Source of the DNA: an uncultured Pelagibacteraceae bacterium
Lineage (GTDB): Bacteria > Pseudomonadota > Alphaproteobacteria > Pelagibacterales > Pelagibacteraceae
DNA length: 64,000 nt
NCBI GenBank assembly: GCA_902585045.1
Contig: CACICB010000002.1
Coordinates: forward strand, 1-64,000
Direction: 5' to 3'
In this document: positions 49,423-58,201 of the stretch, piece by piece
Numbering within the stretch: the first letter of the stretch is position 1
Layout of the letters: the number at the start of each line of letters is the position of its first letter
Translations under genes and position numbers: made by a program
The notes under the pieces: generated by a model
What the model was told of the DNA's origin: nothing
The model's input: only the letters and a program-made list of their open reading frames with translations
The model's database searches: none

Positions 49423-49482
49423 ATGGCTCAAAAAATAATTAATAAGATTTATTGGATTTATTTTACGCTCAAACATAAATGA
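49423..49482 (+). CDS. Possible 19-residue peptide coupling plsY to the glycosyltransferase
   Basis: An ATG directly after the plsY stop opens MAQKIINKIYWIYFTLKHK and ends in TGA overlapping the glycosyltransferase ATG (ATGA, 49479-49482). The perfect stop-start junctions at both ends suggest translational coupling, but the peptide is too short to be supported by composition. It could be the eroded remnant of a lost gene. Confidence 0.3.
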   Translation: MAQKIINKIYWIYFTLKHK

Positions 49483-50753
49483 ATATTGTTTATATTGTTC
49501 ACGAAAATCATTATAATGAGTTATCAGGGGCACCTCTAATAACAAAACACTATGCTGAAAAGGCTATAAATAAAAAAAACAATGTTGCAATCATAACTCC
49601 TTCTGAAAACGAGATAAATCCTTACTTAAACCAAAAAATAATTGACGGTATTAATTTTTTTAATTGGCCTAAGTCAAAAGATTGGAATCTTACTAAACCT
49701 GAAATGATTGAACATAAAAGTTTTTTGAAGAAAATTAAAATTGATTTTAAACCCGACATCATCCATATAATTGATTTGGTTAATTTTAGACCTGATATTC
49801 TTGATTTTTGTAAGAGTCTAAAAGTTCCAATTGTTAAACACGTAATAAACTTTGAAGATTTATCTTTTTTTGATGGAGAATTAAAGTATGAGCACAAAAA
49901 TAATAAATTAGACAAAAAAGGAAGTTTAAATACCTGCCTTACATGCCTTAACAATCATTATCATAATGAAAAAAAAGTAACTGGTCATATCGCAAAATTT
50001 TTATGGTTTAAATTCAATTTAGATATTAAAAATTATTCTGATAAGTTGGAAAAAAGAAGACTAGAAGTAATTGATATTACTGAAAAATATTTTGATCATT
50101 TGATATTTCCTACAAAGAATTTTGCAGATTTTTACTTTTCTCATTTAAATCTAAATAAAAATTTTGATATAATAGGTTTTGGTGTAAAAAAAAATTTAGA
50201 TAAAAGTAATAAAATATCCAATCCTAATAAAAAAATAAATTTTATTTTTGTCGGAGGTGGGAGTGAACGAAAAGGATGGAAATTAGTAGAAGATTCTTTC
50301 GACAAAATTTTAAAAAAATATAAAAATAAAATAAATCTAAGAATTTATGGTTTTAAAAAGAAAACATCTAAATCAAAATTAGCAAAGTATAAAGCCGTTG
50401 AATTTTATGACAGCTTTGATTCTCCGGATCTATATAATACTTTAGCATGGGCTGATTTCGGACTTACAACATCGTATTTTGAAACTTATTGTAAAATTTT
50501 GTATGAATATTTAGAATCAGGAGTTATACCAATTTCAACAAATTTCTTTGGCTCAGAAATAATCACAAATGAGATCAATGGAATAGTCATTAATAGATCT
50601 TTTAAGGAAAATTTAATTAAAACAGTTGAAAATATATTAGAAAATCCAAAAGTAATTGAAAGATACTCAAAAAATGTTAAAAAAACAAAGATCTTGTACG
50701 AAGAAGAAGAATTTGAAAATATTTTTAATATTTATCAAAAATTAAAAAGATAA
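49479..50753 (+). CDS. GT4-type glycosyltransferase
   Basis: A GT-B fold glycosyltransferase of 424 residues. The N-terminal half has IVYIVHENHYNELSGAPLITKHYAE and a CLTCLNN cysteine pair; the C-terminal donor domain has FIFVGGGSERKGWK and the terminal ETYCKILYEYLESGVIPIST with the sugar-nucleotide Glu. Substrates are unknown; surface polysaccharide is likely. It occupies the place where dprA usually lies between plsY and topA, and its richer asparagine/lysine content hints at later acquisition. Confidence 0.8.
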   Translation: MNIVYIVHENHYNELSGAPLITKHYAEKAINKKNNVAIITPSENEINPYLNQKIIDGINFFNWPKSKDWNLTKPEMIEHKSFLKKIKIDFKPDIIHIIDLVNFRPDILDFCKSLKVPIVKHVINFEDLSFFDGELKYEHKNNKLDKKGSLNTCLTCLNNHYHNEKKVTGHIAKFLWFKFNLDIKNYSDKLEKRRLEVIDITEKYFDHLIFPTKNFADFYFSHLNLNKNFDIIGFGVKKNLDKSNKISNPNKKINFIFVGGGSERKGWKLVEDSFDKILKKYKNKINLRIYGFKKKTSKSKLAKYKAVEFYDSFDSPDLYNTLAWADFGLTTSYFETYCKILYEYLESGVIPISTNFFGSEIITNEINGIVINRSFKENLIKTVENILENPKVIERYSKNVKKTKILYEEEEFENIFNIYQKLKR

Positions 50754-50782: not shown

Positions 50783-53347
50783 ATGAATTTAGTAATTGTT
50801 GAAAGTCCAGCTAAAGCGAAAACAATCAATAAATATTTAGGAAAAGATTATTTGGTTTTAGCTAGTTACGGACACATTAGAGATTTACCATCTAAAAATG
50901 GTTCAGTAGATCCTGAAAATAAATTTCAAATGGAGTGGGAAATCGACTCTTTTTCAAAAAAATACTTAAAAGAAATTACAAATGCAGCCGAAGATTCTGA
51001 CAAAATTATTTTAGCAACTGATCCTGATCGTGAAGGTGAAGCTATAGCATGGCATGTTAAAGAAGTTTTAGAAAAGAAGAAGTTGCTTAAAGATAAAAAT
51101 TTGGAAAGAGTTGTATTTAATGAAATTACAAAAAAAGCAATCCTTGATGCAATAAAAAATCCAAGACAAATACATTTACCATTGGTAGAAGCTTATCTAG
51201 CAAGAAGAGCACTTGATTACCTAGTCGGTTTTAATATTTCCCCAATTTTATGGACTAAACTTCCTGGGTCTAAATCTGCAGGCAGAGTACAGTCAGTAGC
51301 ACTTAAACTAATCACAGAAAGAGAAAAAGAAATAGAACTTTTTAAACCTAAGGAATATTGGACACTTACTTCCGATTTCTCAAATAAGGATAATAAAAAA
51401 ATTTTTTCCAAATTAAGTTTATTTAATGGAGAAAAAATTGAGAGATTTTCTTTCAAGAATAAAGAGGAAATTCAAAAAGCAGTTGATGTTATTAATAAAA
51501 CAAAATTTAAGATTGCTGACGTAAATACTAAATTATTTCGAAGAAATCCTCTTGCGCCTTTTACAACTTCTACACTGCAACAAACTGCCTCTGGGCGATT
51601 TGGTTTTGGTGCCTCAAGAACTATGCAAATTGCTCAACGGCTTTATCAAGGAATAGACATAGAAGGAGAAACGACAGGTTTAATTACTTATATGAGAACT
51701 GATGGTACGAACATTTCAAAAGAAGCTATAGAAGATTTTAGAAAACATATTACTGATGACTTTGGCGATAAATATTTACCCAGTGCGCCTAATAACTATA
51801 CTGGAAAAAAAGCTAAAAATGCTCAAGAAGCTCATGAAGCCATAAGGCCAACTAATATTAAAAGAAAACCTGAAGATATTAAAAAATATGTAAATGCAGA
51901 TCAGTTTAAGCTCTATGAATTAATATGGAGTAGAGCCCTATCCTCTCAAATGACGCCAGCTGAGTTTGATAGAAACACAATTATAATCTCATCAGAAAAT
52001 AAGAATATTAATTTTCGAGCAAGTGGTTCTGTTATAAAGTTTGATGGATTCTTAAAAGTTTATCAAGTACAAGAAACTGATGAAGACGCAAAAAACATAC
52101 TCCCTGAAGTAAAAGTAGGTGAAGAAATAAGTATTTTAAAGCTTAATGACGAACAGCATTTCACAGATCCTCCACCAAGGTATTCTGAGGCTAGTCTAGT
52201 TAAAAAGATGGAAGAATTGGGTATTGGAAGACCTTCTACTTACGCAAGCATCATATCTGTATTATCAACTAGAAATTATGTTGAATTGATGAATAAAAGG
52301 TTTCATCCTACAGATAGAGGTAAGCTAATTTCAGCCTTTTTAGAAAAGCTATTCTCTAAATATGTTGATTATAATTTTACAGCAGATCTTGAAAATCAGC
52401 TTGATGAAATAACAAGCGGTAAAATTGAATGGGTAAAAGTTTTAGATAATTTTTGGAAAGATTTTTACGAAAACGTAGGAAAAGTAAAAGAAAAAAGAAC
52501 AAGAGAAGTGCTTGATTTATTAAATGAAAGTTTAGGTGCATTAATTTTTGAAAGGGATGAAAAAGATGCCATAGATAGAAAGTGTAAGCTTTGCGCTAAC
52601 GGAGAACTAAGTCTTAAAAATAGTTTTAGAGGTGGAGCCTTTATTGGTTGTTCAAATTATCCAGAATGTAAATTTACTAGACCCCTATCCAAAGCTAAAG
52701 CTGCTGCACAATATAATTTAGCTGAACCTAAACTATTAGGTCAAAATAATAATGGTAAAGATATATATTTGAAAAATGGAAGATTTGGACCATATCTTCA
52801 ATATGAAAAAGAAAAAGATGAACTTGAATTAAAAAAGAAAAAAGGAAGAAAAAAGAAAAACGAAAACGACCATTTGAAAAATGTTTCAATTCCAAAGGGT
52901 ATTGACATTGATAGTGTGGATTTAGATAAAGCAAAATATTTATGTTCATTACCAAAAGTTTTGGGTCAACATCCGGAAAACGGCCATGACATTACATTAA
53001 ATTCAGGAAGATTTGGCCCGTACTTAAAATGTGAAAATAAATCTGCAAGACTCGAAAATGTAGAGGATCTTTTTTCTATTGGTTTAAATAGAGCTATTAC
53101 AATGATTGCTGAAGCCAAGCCTGGAAGGATATCCTCATCACTAATAAAAGATTTAGGGGAACATCCAGAAGATAAAAAACCAGTTAGGATTATGAAGGGA
53201 CAGTATGGACCTTATATTAAGTATAAGTCTCTAAATGCTACAATTCCTGAGGAAAAAGATCCTAATGAATTAAATATGGAAGAAGCTTTGATTTTAATTG
53301 AAAAAAGAAAGGAATACGATAAGTCTAAGAAAAAGAAAAAAAGATGA
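50783..53347 (+). CDS. topA: DNA topoisomerase I
   Basis: TopA relaxes negative supercoils. The 854-residue protein has the toprim motif LATDPDREGEAIAWH, active-site Tyr303 in LITYMRTDGTNIS, and ARRALDYLVGFNISP. One four-cysteine zinc ribbon (CKLCANG...CSNYPEC) follows, then two to three Gly-Arg-Phe-Gly-Pro-type repeats in the lysine-rich tail. Its last 4 bases overlap pdxA. Confidence 0.97.
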   Translation: MNLVIVESPAKAKTINKYLGKDYLVLASYGHIRDLPSKNGSVDPENKFQMEWEIDSFSKKYLKEITNAAEDSDKIILATDPDREGEAIAWHVKEVLEKKKLLKDKNLERVVFNEITKKAILDAIKNPRQIHLPLVEAYLARRALDYLVGFNISPILWTKLPGSKSAGRVQSVALKLITEREKEIELFKPKEYWTLTSDFSNKDNKKIFSKLSLFNGEKIERFSFKNKEEIQKAVDVINKTKFKIADVNTKLFRRNPLAPFTTSTLQQTASGRFGFGASRTMQIAQRLYQGIDIEGETTGLITYMRTDGTNISKEAIEDFRKHITDDFGDKYLPSAPNNYTGKKAKNAQEAHEAIRPTNIKRKPEDIKKYVNADQFKLYELIWSRALSSQMTPAEFDRNTIIISSENKNINFRASGSVIKFDGFLKVYQVQETDEDAKNILPEVKVGEEISILKLNDEQHFTDPPPRYSEASLVKKMEELGIGRPSTYASIISVLSTRNYVELMNKRFHPTDRGKLISAFLEKLFSKYVDYNFTADLENQLDEITSGKIEWVKVLDNFWKDFYENVGKVKEKRTREVLDLLNESLGALIFERDEKDAIDRKCKLCANGELSLKNSFRGGAFIGCSNYPECKFTRPLSKAKAAAQYNLAEPKLLGQNNNGKDIYLKNGRFGPYLQYEKEKDELELKKKKGRKKKNENDHLKNVSIPKGIDIDSVDLDKAKYLCSLPKVLGQHPENGHDITLNSGRFGPYLKCENKSARLENVEDLFSIGLNRAITMIAEAKPGRISSSLIKDLGEHPEDKKPVRIMKGQYGPYIKYKSLNATIPEEKDPNELNMEEALILIEKRKEYDKSKKKKKR

Positions 53348-54351
53348 ATCTTAACAAAACAAATATAGGATTATTACTAGGTGATCCTTCAGGTATTGGA
53401 CCAGAGTTAACAGTAAAATTACTAGATAGTAATGTGAGCGAAAAAGCTAACATTCTAATAATTGGTGAAAAAAAAGTCTTAGAAGACGGTCAGGAAGTTG
53501 TTGGAAAAAAAATAAATCTAAAATTTGTGGACAAATTTGATGATGTTAATTTTGATGGGAAAACAAAATTTTTTTTAGACATTTCTAAAGGAACAAACAG
53601 ATCATACGTGAAGAAACAGGTTTGTGCCGAGTCAGGTAAAAGTGTTTTAGAGGCTACTGAAATAGCCCTTAGTTTAGCAAAAAAAAATAAAATTCATGCA
53701 ATTAATTTTGCTCCTATGAATAAAGCCAGCCTGATTCAAGGAGGTTGTGAATTTAATGATGAACATGAACTATTTCAAAATAGGCTTAATGTTAAAGATT
53801 TTTGTTGTGAATTCAATGTTGTAGATAATTTTTGGACTGCAAGAGTGACTTCACATATACCAATAAAAGAAGTTGCTCAAAACATAACAAAAGAAAATAT
53901 TTTAAAACCAATAAAACTTTTAAATAAGACACTTAAAATGAGCGGTATTGCAAATCCGAGAATAGCAGTGCAAGCTTTAAACCCTCATGCTGAATTCGGT
54001 ACGGAGGAAAAAGATGAAATAATCCCAGCTATTGAAGAAGCAAAAAAGATGGGTATAAAAGCTGACGGCCCTCTACCATGCGATACTTCATTTATCACAG
54101 CTTTTAAAAATAAAAATCATGATTGTATTGTGGGAATGTATCATGATGCACTTCAGTGTGGTTTAAAAGCATTTGGTTTTGATAGAGGCGTGACCGTTTC
54201 AGGTGGTTTAGATATTCCAATTACAACACCAGCGCACGGTACTGCATTTGATATTACAGGAAAGAATATTGCTAATTTAGAACCAACTATCCAATCATTC
54301 AAATTAGCAATAAAAATGGCTGAGAGTAAATTTAATGGGAAAAGTAATTGA
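53344..54351 (+). CDS. pdxA: 4-hydroxythreonine-4-phosphate dehydrogenase
   Basis: PdxA feeds PdxJ (26.9 kb) in pyridoxal phosphate synthesis. The 335 residues have GDPSGIGPEL, the metal histidines in TSHIPIKEV and NPHAEFGTEE, and GMYHDALQ. It overlaps topA by 4 bases and the RidA gene by 17 bases. In many alphaproteobacteria pdxA follows surA; here it follows topA. Confidence 0.94.
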   Translation: MNLNKTNIGLLLGDPSGIGPELTVKLLDSNVSEKANILIIGEKKVLEDGQEVVGKKINLKFVDKFDDVNFDGKTKFFLDISKGTNRSYVKKQVCAESGKSVLEATEIALSLAKKNKIHAINFAPMNKASLIQGGCEFNDEHELFQNRLNVKDFCCEFNVVDNFWTARVTSHIPIKEVAQNITKENILKPIKLLNKTLKMSGIANPRIAVQALNPHAEFGTEEKDEIIPAIEEAKKMGIKADGPLPCDTSFITAFKNKNHDCIVGMYHDALQCGLKAFGFDRGVTVSGGLDIPITTPAHGTAFDITGKNIANLEPTIQSFKLAIKMAESKFNGKSN

Positions 54352-54799
54352 CAGAATAAATACGTTAAAAATTAAATTACCAGAACCTAAACCTCCAGTA
54401 GGTGCCTATGTTGCTACAAAAATAATTGGAAATTTATTGTATGTATCTGGTCAAGTTTCAATCGATGAAAATGCAAAACTTATTACAGGAAAAATTGGAA
54501 AAGATTTAGATTTGGAAAAAGGTTATAAAGCCGCCGAAAGGTGTGGATTGAGTATAGTTGCACATGTTAAAAACGCCTGCGAAGGAGATTTAGATAAAGT
54601 TAAATCTTGTGTCAAATTAACAGGTTATGTTAATTCAACTAATGATTTTAAAGATCAGCCTAAAATTATTAATGGTGCATCAGATATAATAGCTAAAATC
54701 TTTGAAAAAAAAGGTGAACATACACGTGCAGCTGTGAGTGTGAACAGTTTACCTTTAGGTGTTGCAGTTGAAGTCGATGCTATCTTTGAACTCAATTAA
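54335..54799 (+). CDS. RidA-family (YjgF/YER057c) protein
   Basis: A 154-residue RidA-like protein; many members destroy reactive enamine intermediates of PLP enzymes. It has PPVGAYVATKIIGNLLYVSGQVS, the long helix and VCRGTGYV-like LTGYVNSTNDFKDQP, and AAVSVNSLPLGVAVEVDAI. The conserved Arg for 2-iminobutyrate is at THTRAAV-like EHTRAAVS. It overlaps pdxA by 17 bases, consistent with a PLP-linked role. Confidence 0.85.
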   Translation: MGKVIDRINTLKIKLPEPKPPVGAYVATKIIGNLLYVSGQVSIDENAKLITGKIGKDLDLEKGYKAAERCGLSIVAHVKNACEGDLDKVKSCVKLTGYVNSTNDFKDQPKIINGASDIIAKIFEKKGEHTRAAVSVNSLPLGVAVEVDAIFELN

Positions 54800-54808
54800 T
54801 TTTCAATA

Positions 54809-56080
54809 TTAATTCATACACTTTGGCTCAAATCCAAAGTTTCTATCTACAAAATAAACTGATTTTTTTGATTTCCACATCCTATCATTTGCAACTATAG
54901 TATGATCTCTATCTGTGTACTTTTCAATTAACCAGTCTAGAGATATAGCCATCTGGTGTGTGTGATAATTTGCGTGCGCTTGATCTTTTGTAAAGTTCTG
55001 CAACCCAGATGGATCTTTACGTTCTCTGTATTTTTTAAGATCAGTAAGTCCCAAGTTCAGCACATCGACAGTTTTATCTATTTTTTGTTTTAATTTTTTT
55101 GGAAAATTCTTGTAACCCCAGAGTTCAGCTATTGCATAAAGTCCTAATAAATTATTTACACCCTGTGAATGATACCAGACATCTCTAACACCTCTGAAAC
55201 TGTTATTATGAATATATCCATCTTGATATACGACTTTATCGGCTTTACTAATTCCCTTTTTAATCCATTCTGCTGCGGCACCTGGTTCATCTTTCCAGGC
55301 CAAATACGATAGCACAGAGATAGTTCCATCAGCCATTTGTATAAAACCTCTTGCATGTTTCTTTGTTGTTAATTCTTTTTCAGCCCACGGCTTGATATAT
55401 TTTTTGTACAAAATATCAATATACTCATCAATAATTTTAAATTGTTCTTTAGTAAATTGATCTCTCATTAAGTATGCTTGTTGAATATAGGTAGCTCCAT
55501 ATATTTGAGCTTCGTGCGGCCTGTGAGAAATACAAGGTTTGTCACCTTTGGCTTTCGCACCGCCATAACATAATTTATCAACTTTACCTTCGTCTTTCAG
55601 TTTACTAATTTCCTTAGAAGTTAAAGTACTTAACATCACACCTGCTTGTGCCCAAGCTACCATAACTTCTGCAATTAGTGGTCCATGCTCGTCCATTTTG
55701 CTATCTACAATTGCCGAAATAATGGTTCCATGCAATAATGCTAACCTATTAGAGTGTTTTTCATGATTAACATATATGCTGTTTGATCTTTGTTCGTGAT
55801 CTTTGTTCCAATCATACTTAGTAAGTTTCATTAAATGATCATAGTTGTTTCCTTGTAATTCAGGATTTTTTGACTTGCTTACGTGTGTTATTGCAAGATC
55901 CAAGTCCCAGCCTGCTTTACCCCAACTGCCATAACCATGCACACCTTTAAGAGAACATGTTTTTTTAGAAAGTTCGTTTGCAAAGAAATATTTTGGAATG
56001 ACAATTTCATTTTTATTTGCATAAGCATTGGTAGACAAAATTATTACAAAAAGAAAAAATATTTTTTTCAAATTATTCAC
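54809..56080 (-). CDS. Secreted alginate-lyase-like protein (PL5-type fold)
   Basis: A 423-residue exported protein: signal peptide 1-21 with AYA before the mature start, then an all-helical toroid. Residues 288-304 (DGYIHNNSFRGVRDVWYH) match the PF05426 alginate-lyase pattern with catalytic-like Arg296 and Tyr303 at 7-residue spacing. The other active-site block, NNHSYW in AlgL, appears as KKHARG, keeping His242 but losing the Asn. Activity is therefore uncertain. Its neighbours ugd and galU make UDP-glucuronate, suggesting a polysaccharide-related periplasmic role. Confidence 0.55.
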   Translation of the reverse strand: MNNLKKIFFLFVIILSTNAYANKNEIVIPKYFFANELSKKTCSLKGVHGYGSWGKAGWDLDLAITHVSKSKNPELQGNNYDHLMKLTKYDWNKDHEQRSNSIYVNHEKHSNRLALLHGTIISAIVDSKMDEHGPLIAEVMVAWAQAGVMLSTLTSKEISKLKDEGKVDKLCYGGAKAKGDKPCISHRPHEAQIYGATYIQQAYLMRDQFTKEQFKIIDEYIDILYKKYIKPWAEKELTTKKHARGFIQMADGTISVLSYLAWKDEPGAAAEWIKKGISKADKVVYQDGYIHNNSFRGVRDVWYHSQGVNNLLGLYAIAELWGYKNFPKKLKQKIDKTVDVLNLGLTDLKKYRERKDPSGLQNFTKDQAHANYHTHQMAISLDWLIEKYTDRDHTIVANDRMWKSKKSVYFVDRNFGFEPKCMN

Positions 56081-57385
56081 TTAAATAGAGTTAGGCCTTC
56101 CAATAGAGAAGTAGCTAATTTTATTTTTTTTCATTTCTTCTGAGGAATAAAGATTTCTTAAATCATACACTTTAAAATTCCTTTTTTTAACGATTTTTTT
56201 AAAATCAATCGATTTGAATTCATCCCATTCAGTTAGTAGAATTAATAAATCTGCACCATTGCAATTAGATTTGATATTATTTTTGTAATTGCAGTTTTTA
56301 ATTTTCATAAATTCTTTTTTTTCACCCGAAGGATCATAGTAATTAACTTTTGCTCCTTTTTTGCATAGATAAGGTATCATGCTAAGGCTAGTAGAATCTC
56401 GCATATCATCAGTGTTTGGTTTAAATGTAACTCCTAAGAAAGAAATTCTTTTATTTTTTATATTTGCACCCAAGATTTTATGAATTCTTTGAGTAAGTAA
56501 ATTAACTCTTTCTTTATTAGATTTAATAACTGATTTCACAACTGATAGATTTATCTTATATTTCTCTGCAGCAGATACGAGACCTTTTGTATCTTTTGGA
56601 AAGCATGAGCCTCCATATGCTGGGCCAGCACGTAAAAACCTACCGCCTATTCTACTATCAGAGCCCATCCCTAATGAAATATCTTCTATATTAACTCCAG
56701 ATTTTTCACATAAGTTTGCAAGTTCATTAATGAAAGTAATCTTAGTTGCGAGAAAAGCATTTGATGCGTATTTTATTAATTCAGCTCCTCTTCTTGAGGT
56801 AGTAAAAAATTTTGACCCTTTATTAATTAATGGTGCATAAAGTTTTCTCATAATATTGAAGGTTCTTTTTTCGTTAGATCCTATTACAATTCTATCCGGA
56901 TATCTAAAATCTCGAATTGCTTCACCCTCTCTTAAGAATTCAGGATTAGAGATTACTGTAAAAAGTTTTTTCTTTTTTTTTAAAATTTTTTCAATCTCAT
57001 CACCTGTTCCTACAGGCACAGTAGACTTGGTAATGATAATTTTTTTTCTTTTTGAATATTTTAATATCTCTTTCGTGCATTTATAAACGAAAGATAAATC
57101 AACTTTAATTGATCCTTTTTTTGTAGGAGTCCCCACGCATATAAAAATTATATCTGATGAGTTTATGGCTCTATCAATATTTGAAGTAAATGAAAGACGT
57201 TTAGCTGTAAAATTTTTTTGAATTAATTCATCTAATCCTGGTTCATAAATTGGAGAAATTCCAGAGTTGAGTTTTTCTATTTTATTTTTATCTTTATCAA
57301 CACAAACAACCTGGTTACCTATGTCAGCAAAGCAGACTCCGCTAACTAATCCAACGTAACCAGTTCCAATCATACATAGTTTCAT
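56081..57385 (-). CDS. ugd: UDP-glucose 6-dehydrogenase
   Basis: Ugd oxidises UDP-glucose to UDP-glucuronate. The 434 residues have GTGYVGLVSGVCFADIG at the N-terminus, TKSTVPVGTGDE, and the active-site Cys261 in AGPAYGGSCFPKDTKG. It abuts the lyase-like gene and galU with no gap, forming a tight minus-strand set with galU first. Confidence 0.95.
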   Translation of the reverse strand: MKLCMIGTGYVGLVSGVCFADIGNQVVCVDKDKNKIEKLNSGISPIYEPGLDELIQKNFTAKRLSFTSNIDRAINSSDIIFICVGTPTKKGSIKVDLSFVYKCTKEILKYSKRKKIIITKSTVPVGTGDEIEKILKKKKKLFTVISNPEFLREGEAIRDFRYPDRIVIGSNEKRTFNIMRKLYAPLINKGSKFFTTSRRGAELIKYASNAFLATKITFINELANLCEKSGVNIEDISLGMGSDSRIGGRFLRAGPAYGGSCFPKDTKGLVSAAEKYKINLSVVKSVIKSNKERVNLLTQRIHKILGANIKNKRISFLGVTFKPNTDDMRDSTSLSMIPYLCKKGAKVNYYDPSGEKKEFMKIKNCNYKNNIKSNCNGADLLILLTEWDEFKSIDFKKIVKKRNFKVYDLRNLYSSEEMKKNKISYFSIGRPNSI

Positions 57386-58201
57386 TTAATTTCCCTTAGA
57401 TATTTGAATTCCTGAATTTATATATCCACTTAAAGTTCCACAATCTAAATATTTCCCCTTAAAAATATTTCCGTAAAATTTATACTCTTTTTTAATTAAA
57501 CTTCTAATTGCGTCAGTAATATGTATTTCTCCTCCCTGACCAGGTTTTAATTTTTTGATTTCACTAAAAACTTTTTTTGGCAATATATATCTTCCAATAA
57601 TTGCAAAATTTGATGGCGCTTTTTTGATGCTAGGTTTCTCTACAACGTCTTTAATTCGAAAATAGCTTTTTTTTTTATTTTGGATCGATAAAATTCCCCA
57701 TCTTGATACTGTTTTTCTCTCTACTCTTTTTGTAGCAATTATAGAACCTTTAGTTTTTTTATGTAGTCGTATCATTTCTTTTGAACAATTATTTTTTATT
57801 ATTAAGTCATCGGGTAAGAGCATTAAAAAATATTTACTTTTTATAAATTTTTGGCATTTTAGAACTGCATCACCTGTACCTTTTGGCTTGTTTTGATAAA
57901 CAAATTTTATCATTTTCTGATATCTTTTTATTTTTTTATATTCTTCAAGTAGTCTTTTATTTTTCTTTTTTTTTATTATCTTTTTATAAAAACTGTCATT
58001 AAAAAAATATTTTTTAATCGATAGTTTTTTTTTTGAAATTATAAATATAAATTCCTTTACACCTGCTTCAATGCATTCATCTAATATATATTGTAAATTC
58101 GGTTTACCATTGATGGGCATCAACTCTTTTGGCATTACACTTGTCAAAGGAAGCAATCTAGTCCCTAAACCTGCTAATGGAATAATGGCTTGTTTTATCA
58201 T
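57386..58201 (-). CDS. galU: UTP-glucose-1-phosphate uridylyltransferase
   Basis: GalU makes UDP-glucose, the substrate of Ugd. The 271 residues have AGLGTRLLPLTSVMPKELMPI, the NLQYILDEC segment and FLMLLPDDLIIKN with its metal-binding Asp. Low-complexity lysine stretches (about 50-90) are typical of this genome. It is divergent from panC across 38 bases. Confidence 0.93.
   Translation of the reverse strand: MIKQAIIPLAGLGTRLLPLTSVMPKELMPINGKPNLQYILDECIEAGVKEFIFIISKKKLSIKKYFFNDSFYKKIIKKKKNKRLLEEYKKIKRYQKMIKFVYQNKPKGTGDAVLKCQKFIKSKYFLMLLPDDLIIKNNCSKEMIRLHKKTKGSIIATKRVERKTVSRWGILSIQNKKKSYFRIKDVVEKPSIKKAPSNFAIIGRYILPKKVFSEIKKLKPGQGGEIHITDAIRSLIKKEYKFYGNIFKGKYLDCGTLSGYINSGIQISKGN

What the first reader, a model, noticed from the sequence alone, without database searches (positions are those of the whole stretch)
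54809..58201. Alginate-lyase-like protein in a set with UDP-glucuronate synthesis genes
galU, ugd and a secreted PL5-like protein are consecutive with no gaps. The lyase-like protein keeps His, Arg and Tyr of the AlgL active site but has Lys where AlgL has Asn. In pseudomonads AlgL is encoded within the alginate biosynthesis cluster, but no polymerase is seen here. This may be a minimal uronic-acid glycan system or a repurposed binding protein.
Basis: partly seen in the sequence, partly recalled or inferred. Interest (0 to 1): 0.55.

Follow-up and report, generated by a model that had tools for sequence, protein, structure and literature searches.

The report
Swappable lyase-like gene beside sugar genes
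A SAR11 ocean bacterium carries an exported protein that resembles enzymes which cut uronic-acid polysaccharides; it most likely sits beside two sugar-nucleotide genes because it was inserted there, and it belongs to a pool of exchangeable exported-protein genes rather than to a glycan-making pathway.

Summary
The three genes are real, on the minus strand and gapless (galU 57386-58201, ugd 56081-57385, lyase-like 54809-56080), in a SAR11 genome. The lyase-like protein looks exported and has no Pfam match, but its predicted fold is the alpha/alpha toroid of PL5 (Z 18.4 to A1-III, 18.1 to AlgL), and relatives link it to PF05426. Arg and Tyr of the PL5 site are invariant in 18 of 18 A-type rows. 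'A set with UDP-glucuronate genes' is not supported: panC-galU-ugd-RidA is conserved in 21 of 21 loci of the genus, and the lyase gene lies in it in only 2. Elsewhere it sits among PF14099 polysaccharide lyases and other exported proteins; it is exchanged between lineages, and its neighbours are reordered with junctions at stop/start overlaps. A divergent relative lies on three phage contigs. Best reading: an accessory, horizontally exchanged, exported PL5-like uronan lyase; activity, substrate and role are inferred.

The parts
54809..56080 (-). PL5-like, probably exported protein, 423 aa, GTG start (A-type)
   Evidence: ORF; fold; relatives; no Pfam match
56018..56080 (-). Signal-peptide-coding stretch (21 aa to ...NAYA, cleavage by eye)
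   Evidence: sequence; its first 26 bases are shared with an unrelated PF14099 lyase gene at the same place in L027
55193..55195 (-). Arg codon (residue 296 of the full protein, 295 in A1 numbering), aligned to Smlt1473 Arg215 and the AlgL Arg
   Evidence: invariant in 18 of 18 and 17 of 17 rows; PDB profile alignment; Smlt1473 residues from PMC8511899
55172..55174 (-). Tyr codon (residue 303; 302 in A1 numbering), aligned to Smlt1473 Tyr222
   Evidence: invariant in the same rows
55355..55357 (-).
   Evidence: His in 11 of 18 rows
56081..57385 (-). ugd, UDP-glucose/nucleotide-sugar dehydrogenase; conserved neighbour, not shown to be part of the system
   Evidence: synteny
57386..58201 (-). 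galU, UTP-glucose-1-phosphate uridylyltransferase; conserved neighbour
   Evidence: synteny
54335..54799 (+). RidA-like gene (name recalled from its sequence), the convergent neighbour; in sites without the lyase gene its end overlaps or touches the end of ugd

Best explanation
The gene encodes an exported (periplasmic or secreted) PL5-like lyase that cleaves an acidic, uronate-containing polysaccharide or oligosaccharide by beta-elimination, with Tyr as acid and base and Arg neutralising the carboxylate, and with other conserved residues (Gln247, Asn291/292 or His185 are candidates) standing in for the lost Asn-His pair. It is an accessory gene of SAR11 that moves between lineages and positions. 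In this genome it has been inserted between the conserved gene ugd and its convergent neighbour. The most likely role is scavenging of dissolved mannuronate- or glucuronate-rich glycans. SHOWN here: gene, position, insertion pattern, patchy presence, fold prediction, conserved Arg/Tyr. INFERRED: export, lyase activity, substrate, stand-in residues, role.
For: Fold: AF2 model from 21 sequences, pLDDT 64.2, pTM 0.75; Foldseek ranks 1-14 are all PL5 (Smlt1473, PanPL; prob 1.00, best E 3e-3); VIA-align Z 18.4 over 317 residues to A1-III, 18.1 to AlgL. A profile of A, B and C types has AlgL (E 0.0021) and Smlt1473 (0.0045) as its best PDB hits with R-x6-Y aligned. Divergent relatives give PF05426 as best Pfam hit, two C-type proteins just above cut-off (E 8.4e-5, 9.2e-5), five of seven B-type below it. 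Context elsewhere: PF14099 polysaccharide lyases, a sulfatase, a PF05426 lyase. Insertion: panC-galU-ugd-RidA in 21 of 21 loci, the lyase gene at that junction in 2 of 21; in the other 19 ugd and RidA overlap by 8 bases (17), by 4 (1) or lie 1 base apart (1). Exchange: in L009 and L010 synonymous codon differences to the window are 15-17% for the lyase gene and 34-47% for eight flanking genes. Chemistry: for Smlt1473 the authors propose Tyr222 as base and acid for ManA with Arg215 and Asn167 neutralising; polyGlcA is cut best at pH 7 (PMC8511899, passages).
Against: No PF05426 match for the protein itself at any reported E-value. The PL5 Asn-His pair is absent by position, and His168-to-Ala is called inactivating in Smlt1473 (passages); His mutants of A1-III and PanPL were likewise crystallised with substrate (titles). 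Foldseek gives no match at E 0.001 or below, and other alpha/alpha-toroid proteins score Z 14-17, human dermatan sulfate epimerase (15.3) among them, so the fold alone does not single out PL5 or lyase activity. Model confidence is moderate; 131 of 422 residues are below pLDDT 50, among them 293-298 around the Arg. No uronate catabolism gene was looked for. 10 of 23 fetched A-type loci do lie at the ugd junction (not independent lineages), so a functional link with UDP-glucuronate is not excluded.
Confidence: 0.52

Rival explanations
1. Non-catalytic descendant: a PL5-fold protein that binds uronate glycans (a capture or signalling protein) without cutting them.
For: The Asn-His pair of PL5 is missing by position, and the His is needed in Smlt1473 (H168A 'inactivating'); the protein has no Pfam match.
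Against: Arg, Tyr, the His after Tyr and a D-G-x-I...R-G block are invariant in A, B and C types; neighbours elsewhere include polysaccharide lyases and a sulfatase.
Confidence: 0.28
2. A factor that trims the cell's own glucuronate-bearing surface glycan (made with galU-ugd), used by SAR11 and by phages to change adsorption or superinfection.
For: A B-type relative with a signal-peptide-like start lies on three IMG/VR contigs (two alike over the stretch seen); one has a phage-type clamp loader (phrog_168, 3.9e-75), and the neighbours of the gene match phrog_11383 and phrog_1314. A-type lies at the ugd junction in 10 of 23 loci.
Against: A-type itself was found on no viral contig by peptide patterns and in no phage record, B-type in no phage record; 13 of 23 A-type loci are elsewhere; no surface glycan is known here.
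Confidence: 0.12
3. Minimal uronic-acid glycan biosynthesis system: galU and ugd supply UDP-GlcA, the lyase edits the polymer, as AlgL does in the alginate cluster.
For: Gapless same-strand order.
Against: galU-ugd without the lyase gene in 19 of 21 loci; lyase gene without ugd within the fetched flanks in 13 of 23 loci; no match to PF13641 or PF02563 in the genome, with the controls positive in 14 of 14 and 4 of 14 genomes.
Confidence: 0.06

Closest known systems
PL5 alginate/uronan lyases (A1-III, AlgL, Smlt1473, PanPL; Pfam PF05426)
   Same: Predicted alpha/alpha toroid, Arg and Tyr of the active site, profile links through relatives
   Different: No PF05426 match; catalytic Asn-His pair absent by position; 8-14% identity in the structural alignments; not in an alginate gene cluster
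PL38 (BoPL38)
   Same: Same fold class, Z 15.5-16.3 for rows titled PL38, tied with Smlt1473 (16.4-16.6) and below A1-III (18.4)
   Different: No sequence link sought; Gln at the His position here only recalls the Gln173 that was mutated in BoPL38 (entry titles)
AlgL in the Pseudomonas alginate cluster (context recalled, not from a call)
   Same: Exported lyase fold next to a nucleotide-sugar dehydrogenase gene
   Different: The neighbour is ugd, not algD; no PF13641 synthase found; the position is an insertion, not a conserved cluster
PF14099 polysaccharide lyases of SAR11 arrays
   Same: Neighbours in the same exported-gene arrays
   Different: Another Pfam family; the all-against-all BLAST put them in separate groups

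Membership tests
PF05426 / CAZy PL5 | HMM score over the curated cut-off | tested here: not met
   window protein: no match to E 10, none in own genome; five of seven B-type relatives sub-threshold (13-21.6 bits vs 22.2) and two without a hit; two C-type just over (22.5, 22.6)
PF05426 / CAZy PL5 | alpha/alpha toroid fold of PL5 | tested here: met
   moderate-confidence model; the fold is shared with other lyase families
PF05426 / CAZy PL5 | Active-site Arg and Tyr, seven residues apart | tested here: met
   invariant in 18 of 18 (A1) and 17 of 17 (A5) rows; aligned
PF05426 / CAZy PL5 | Active-site Asn-His (NNH) pair | tested here: not met
   Equivalent position by spacing is Gln/Met; the KKH proposed is His in 11 of 18. 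No residue-level superposition was available
PF05426 / CAZy PL5 | beta-elimination activity on uronans | not testable with these tools
   needs an enzyme assay
PL38 | PL38 fold and catalytic residues | tested here: inconclusive
   Z 15.5-16.3; residues not superposed
Uronan biosynthesis cluster (alginate type) | Processive synthase and outer-membrane export in the genome | tested here: not met
   no match to PF13641 or PF02563 in the 86.5% complete genome; a gene in the missing part, or of another family, is possible

The most novel reading that the evidence does not exclude
SAR11 keeps a shared, swappable wardrobe of exported proteins (PL5-like and PF14099 lyases, hydrolases and others) whose genes are exchanged as cassettes with junctions in the stop/start and signal-peptide DNA. 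A 36-40-base element coding for the signal-peptide start, dispersed through SAR11 genomes and often present as an orphan copy, serves as the recombination site, and phages carry relatives of members of the set. The window's gene is one such cassette parked at the ugd junction.
Probability: 0.3. Interest if true: 0.75.

Novelty: new variant of a known kind. Interest (0 to 1): 0.5.

Why it matters
SAR11 is among the most abundant bacteria of the surface ocean and is usually described as living on small molecules (both recalled). Exported polysaccharide-lyase-like genes that profile libraries miss, that are swapped between lineages and that have relatives on phages would mean that part of SAR11 may act on acidic polymers, and that this trait is carried by a fast-moving gene pool. 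A divergent B-type relative also lies in a single-contig genome of 1,308,759 bases, which I recall as the size of the cultured strain HTCC1062 (identity not confirmed by any search), so the question may be testable in culture.

Tried and rejected
galU-ugd-lyase as an operon of a biosynthetic system: rejected on synteny and on the missing synthase/exporter.

KKH as the catalytic Asn-His: rejected.

Structure prediction from the single sequence: pLDDT 41, discarded. PDB search with the single sequence: one chance-level hit, E 0.23. PHROGs with the window protein: E 0.12.

A-type gene on viruses: none in viral contigs by peptide patterns, none in 50,697 phage records; B-type none in phage records. 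Phage tests on the three viral contigs: PF03420 rang nowhere, controls included, so it says nothing; phrog_1297 rang in 14 of 14 cellular controls, so it is not viral evidence; PF03237 terminase not found. The phage reading rests on IMG/VR's own classification and on the families.

Literature: judged by titles and starts of abstracts, no listed paper was about SAR11 PL5-like lyases or signal-peptide cassettes. The lists were cut (15 of 52, 15 of 16, 10 of 13, 12 of 20, 12 of 93, 10 of 84). Only PMC8511899 was opened, passages only. Preprints and most subscription journals are not in the library, so absence from print is not claimed.

Tree of A-type proteins (22 of the 23 fetched A-type loci, L026 left out because it is split in two frames, plus 2 B-type rows): the site label (ugd junction or elsewhere) needs 3 changes, at least 2 forced by starred branches, shuffled mean 7.3. 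So the ugd position is clustered but not shown to be of one origin. Several rows are near-copies.

Full report
WHAT IS THERE. The window lies in a 918,826-base, 29-contig genome, 86.5% complete. Three records with 99-100% identical copies of the lyase-like gene are titled uncultured Pelagibacteraceae bacterium, so the source is SAR11. galU (57386-58201), ugd (56081-57385) and the lyase-like gene (54809-56080) follow each other on the minus strand without an intergenic base; the ugd stop TAA is followed by the GTG start. Residue numbers below follow alignment A1, which starts after the GTG codon; add 1 for the full protein.

IS IT PL5? The protein itself matches nothing in Pfam (to E 10), nothing in NCBIfam (to E 1), PHROGs only at 0.12 and the PDB by sequence only at 0.23, and PF05426 finds nothing in the whole genome. 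In the genus, PF05426 finds 5 of 169 genomes, 4 over the cut-off, the window's not among them. Relatives come in three grades. A-type (78-100% identical): 23 loci in the species-genome collection. B-type, 29-35% identical, and C-type, 19%. A and B profiles match at E 1.4e-50. A against a mixed alignment holding three C-type and three clear PF05426 proteins gives E 3.8e-6, probability 87%. Two C-type proteins pass the PF05426 cut-off narrowly (22.6 and 22.5 bits against 22.2). Of seven B-type proteins scanned, five have PF05426 below cut-off (E 1.6e-4 to 0.07) and two have no Pfam hit. A profile of 17 A, B and C rows has AlgL (E 0.0021) and Smlt1473 (E 0.0045) as its best PDB hits, with R-x6-Y aligned. 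An AlphaFold model from 21 sequences (pLDDT 64.2, pTM 0.75) has PL5 enzymes at Foldseek ranks 1-14 (best E 3e-3, none at 0.001 or below) and VIA-align Z 18.4 to A1-III and 18.1 to AlgL. Other toroid families follow closely (PL33 and an Agrobacterium alginate lyase 16.8, PL38 16.3, human dermatan sulfate epimerase 15.3), so the fold alone does not name the family; with the profile links and Arg/Tyr it points to PL5. The protein does not meet the Pfam definition.

ACTIVE SITE. In Smlt1473 the residues are Asn167, His168, Arg215 and Tyr222. The authors propose that Tyr222 is both base and acid for mannuronate, with His168 as base for guluronate or iduronate or if the proton moves below the plane; polyglucuronate is cut best at pH 7 (PMC8511899, passages). 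Against an easy reading, they call H168A an inactivating mutant in work with a hyaluronan substrate. Here Arg295 and Tyr302, with the same spacing, are invariant in 18 of 18 A-type rows and 17 of 17 mixed rows. Counting back from Tyr as in Smlt1473 lands on Gln247/Met248; Gln247 is invariant in A-type (18 of 18) but Ala in the 7 B-type rows and Met in the 2 C-type rows of A5. So 'keeps His, Lys replaces Asn' is wrong, and activity is possible but unproven.

IS IT A SET WITH galU-ugd? Not by synteny. Of 41 genomes searched with Ugd, 34 match; of the 25 genomes of the window's genus among them, 21 have a close Ugd, and I looked at those 21 loci (L059-L079). All 21 have panC-galU-ugd-RidA in that order. 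The lyase gene stands between ugd and RidA in 2 (own and G018); in the other 19 ugd and RidA overlap by 8 bases (17), by 4 (1) or lie 1 base apart (1). G019 has an empty ugd site and an A-type gene elsewhere. Of the 23 fetched A-type loci, 8 have the gene directly after ugd, 1 (L027) has a PF14099 lyase gene in between, 1 (L024) has RidA beside it but the contig ends before ugd, and 13 have no ugd in the fetched flanks. Presence is patchy: 4 A-type (own included) and 1 C-type match in 61 genomes, none in the 16 that are at least 90% complete; in 397 genomes of the order, 12 A-type, 26 B-type-grade matches (E 1e-37 to 1e-56) and 1 weak match. Several of these genomes are the same cells as loci (matching contig lengths), so the counts are not independent. 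In the class, 2 of 385 genomes besides the window's have a divergent match, one with a stop inside. Two A-type loci are in contigs titled SAR116; GC along them is mixed (0.22-0.48) and I did not test whether the contigs are pure.

MOBILITY. Against the window, L009 and L010 differ at 34-47% of synonymous codons in eight flanking genes but at 15-17% in the lyase gene. L012 shows the effect weakly (17% against 20-41%). L006, L007 and L011 are near-identical in the lyase gene (0-1%) and also close in the genes beside it. L008, L016 and L027 do not show it. At one chromosomal place with flanks 94-100% identical between L014 and L025 (cinA was compared only with L013: 76 and 77%), L014 reads 104-aa gene, lyase, beta-lactamase-like gene, while L025 has an alpha/beta-hydrolase gene between the lyase and the beta-lactamase-like gene; in L013 and L015 the hydrolase precedes the lyase. 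The junction after the lyase gene is TAATGAAAAAA in 9 of the 23 loci (L013, L014, L015, L017-L020, L025, L028), and after the hydrolase gene in 3 of 3 (L013, L015, L025); other junctions in the arrays have gaps. The next gene after the lyase is, in different loci, weakly beta-lactamase-like (E 0.0023), alpha/beta-hydrolase, FG-GAP, amidohydrolase or PF14099 lyase. At the ugd site a 41-base run, 15 bases of the ugd end and 26 from the GTG on, is identical between the window's lyase gene and the unrelated PF14099 gene of L027, after which they diverge. This fits exchange with a junction in the signal-peptide stretch; it does not prove the mechanism, and the stretch is short and A/T-rich.

A DISPERSED SIGNAL-PEPTIDE ELEMENT. 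A 36-base pattern made from these starts (up to 3 mismatches) occurs in 125 of 297 family genomes, up to 15 copies; the reversed pattern in none of the genomes listed; the window's genome has none. In 39 stretches read (30 returned by the tool, 9 chosen by me from genomes with copies, several with many), with up to 5 mismatches, 65 distinct copies remained after dropping near-duplicates (fewer than 20 differences in 200 bases) and copies too near an end; 27 of 65 meet a stop within 60 codons, and their consensus looks like that of the others. Conservation inside the pattern is partly by selection; the loss just before the ATG is not. The orphan share is not a population estimate.

PHAGE LINK. 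B-type genes with signal-peptide-like starts lie on three IMG/VR contigs, two of them alike over the stretch seen. Neighbours match phrog_11383 and phrog_1314, and elsewhere on one contig there are a phage clamp loader, a Nol-like carbamoyltransferase and a ribose-phosphate pyrophosphokinase. PF03237 terminase was not found.

CONTEXT ELSEWHERE. A-type loci outside the ugd site hold PF14099 polysaccharide lyases, a sulfatase (L017), a PF05426 lyase (L028), DUF1800/DUF1501 proteins and others. L048 has a PF05426 protein (E 7.1e-33) next to a B-type gene. No match to a PF13641 synthase or a PF02563 exporter is in the window's genome, which fits breakdown better than synthesis.

VERDICT. An accessory, horizontally exchanged, probably exported PL5-like protein; about as likely as not, or somewhat more, a uronan lyase (0.52 for the whole reading); not a component of a galU-ugd glycan pathway.

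Noticed in passing
L098-L136; not in the window's genome: A 36-40-base DNA element coding for MKKLLGIxVLGL starts many unrelated exported genes in SAR11; 125 of 297 family genomes, up to 15 copies, and 27 of 65 distinct copies read are orphans with an early stop.
   Followed up: partly
L089:5001-6137, L090:1744-2892, L091:5001-6137: Viral contigs carry a B-type PL5-like gene with a signal-peptide-like start.
   Followed up: partly
L017, L018, L028, L048, L054: SAR11 arrays of exported PF14099 lyases, a sulfatase, DUF1800/DUF1501 proteins, a weak GH10-like protein and PF05426 lyases; L054 holds a B-type gene before a valS-like gene (by eye) in a 1,308,759-base single-contig genome.
   Followed up: partly
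window 53344-54351: pdxA-like gene between RidA and topA is present in some relatives (L006, L007, L008, L011, L024) and not seen in others (L009, L010, L012, L016, L027).
   Followed up: no
window 49479-50753: GT4 glycosyltransferase gene beside topA; not seen in any of the 9 relatives' loci that reach past topA to the next gene.
   Followed up: no
L026:6001-7256: One A-type copy is split over two reading frames.
   Followed up: no
L142:6444-8961: The phage contig also holds genes that look like a TctA/TctC-type tricarboxylate transporter (by eye; no PHROG match for the first).
   Followed up: no
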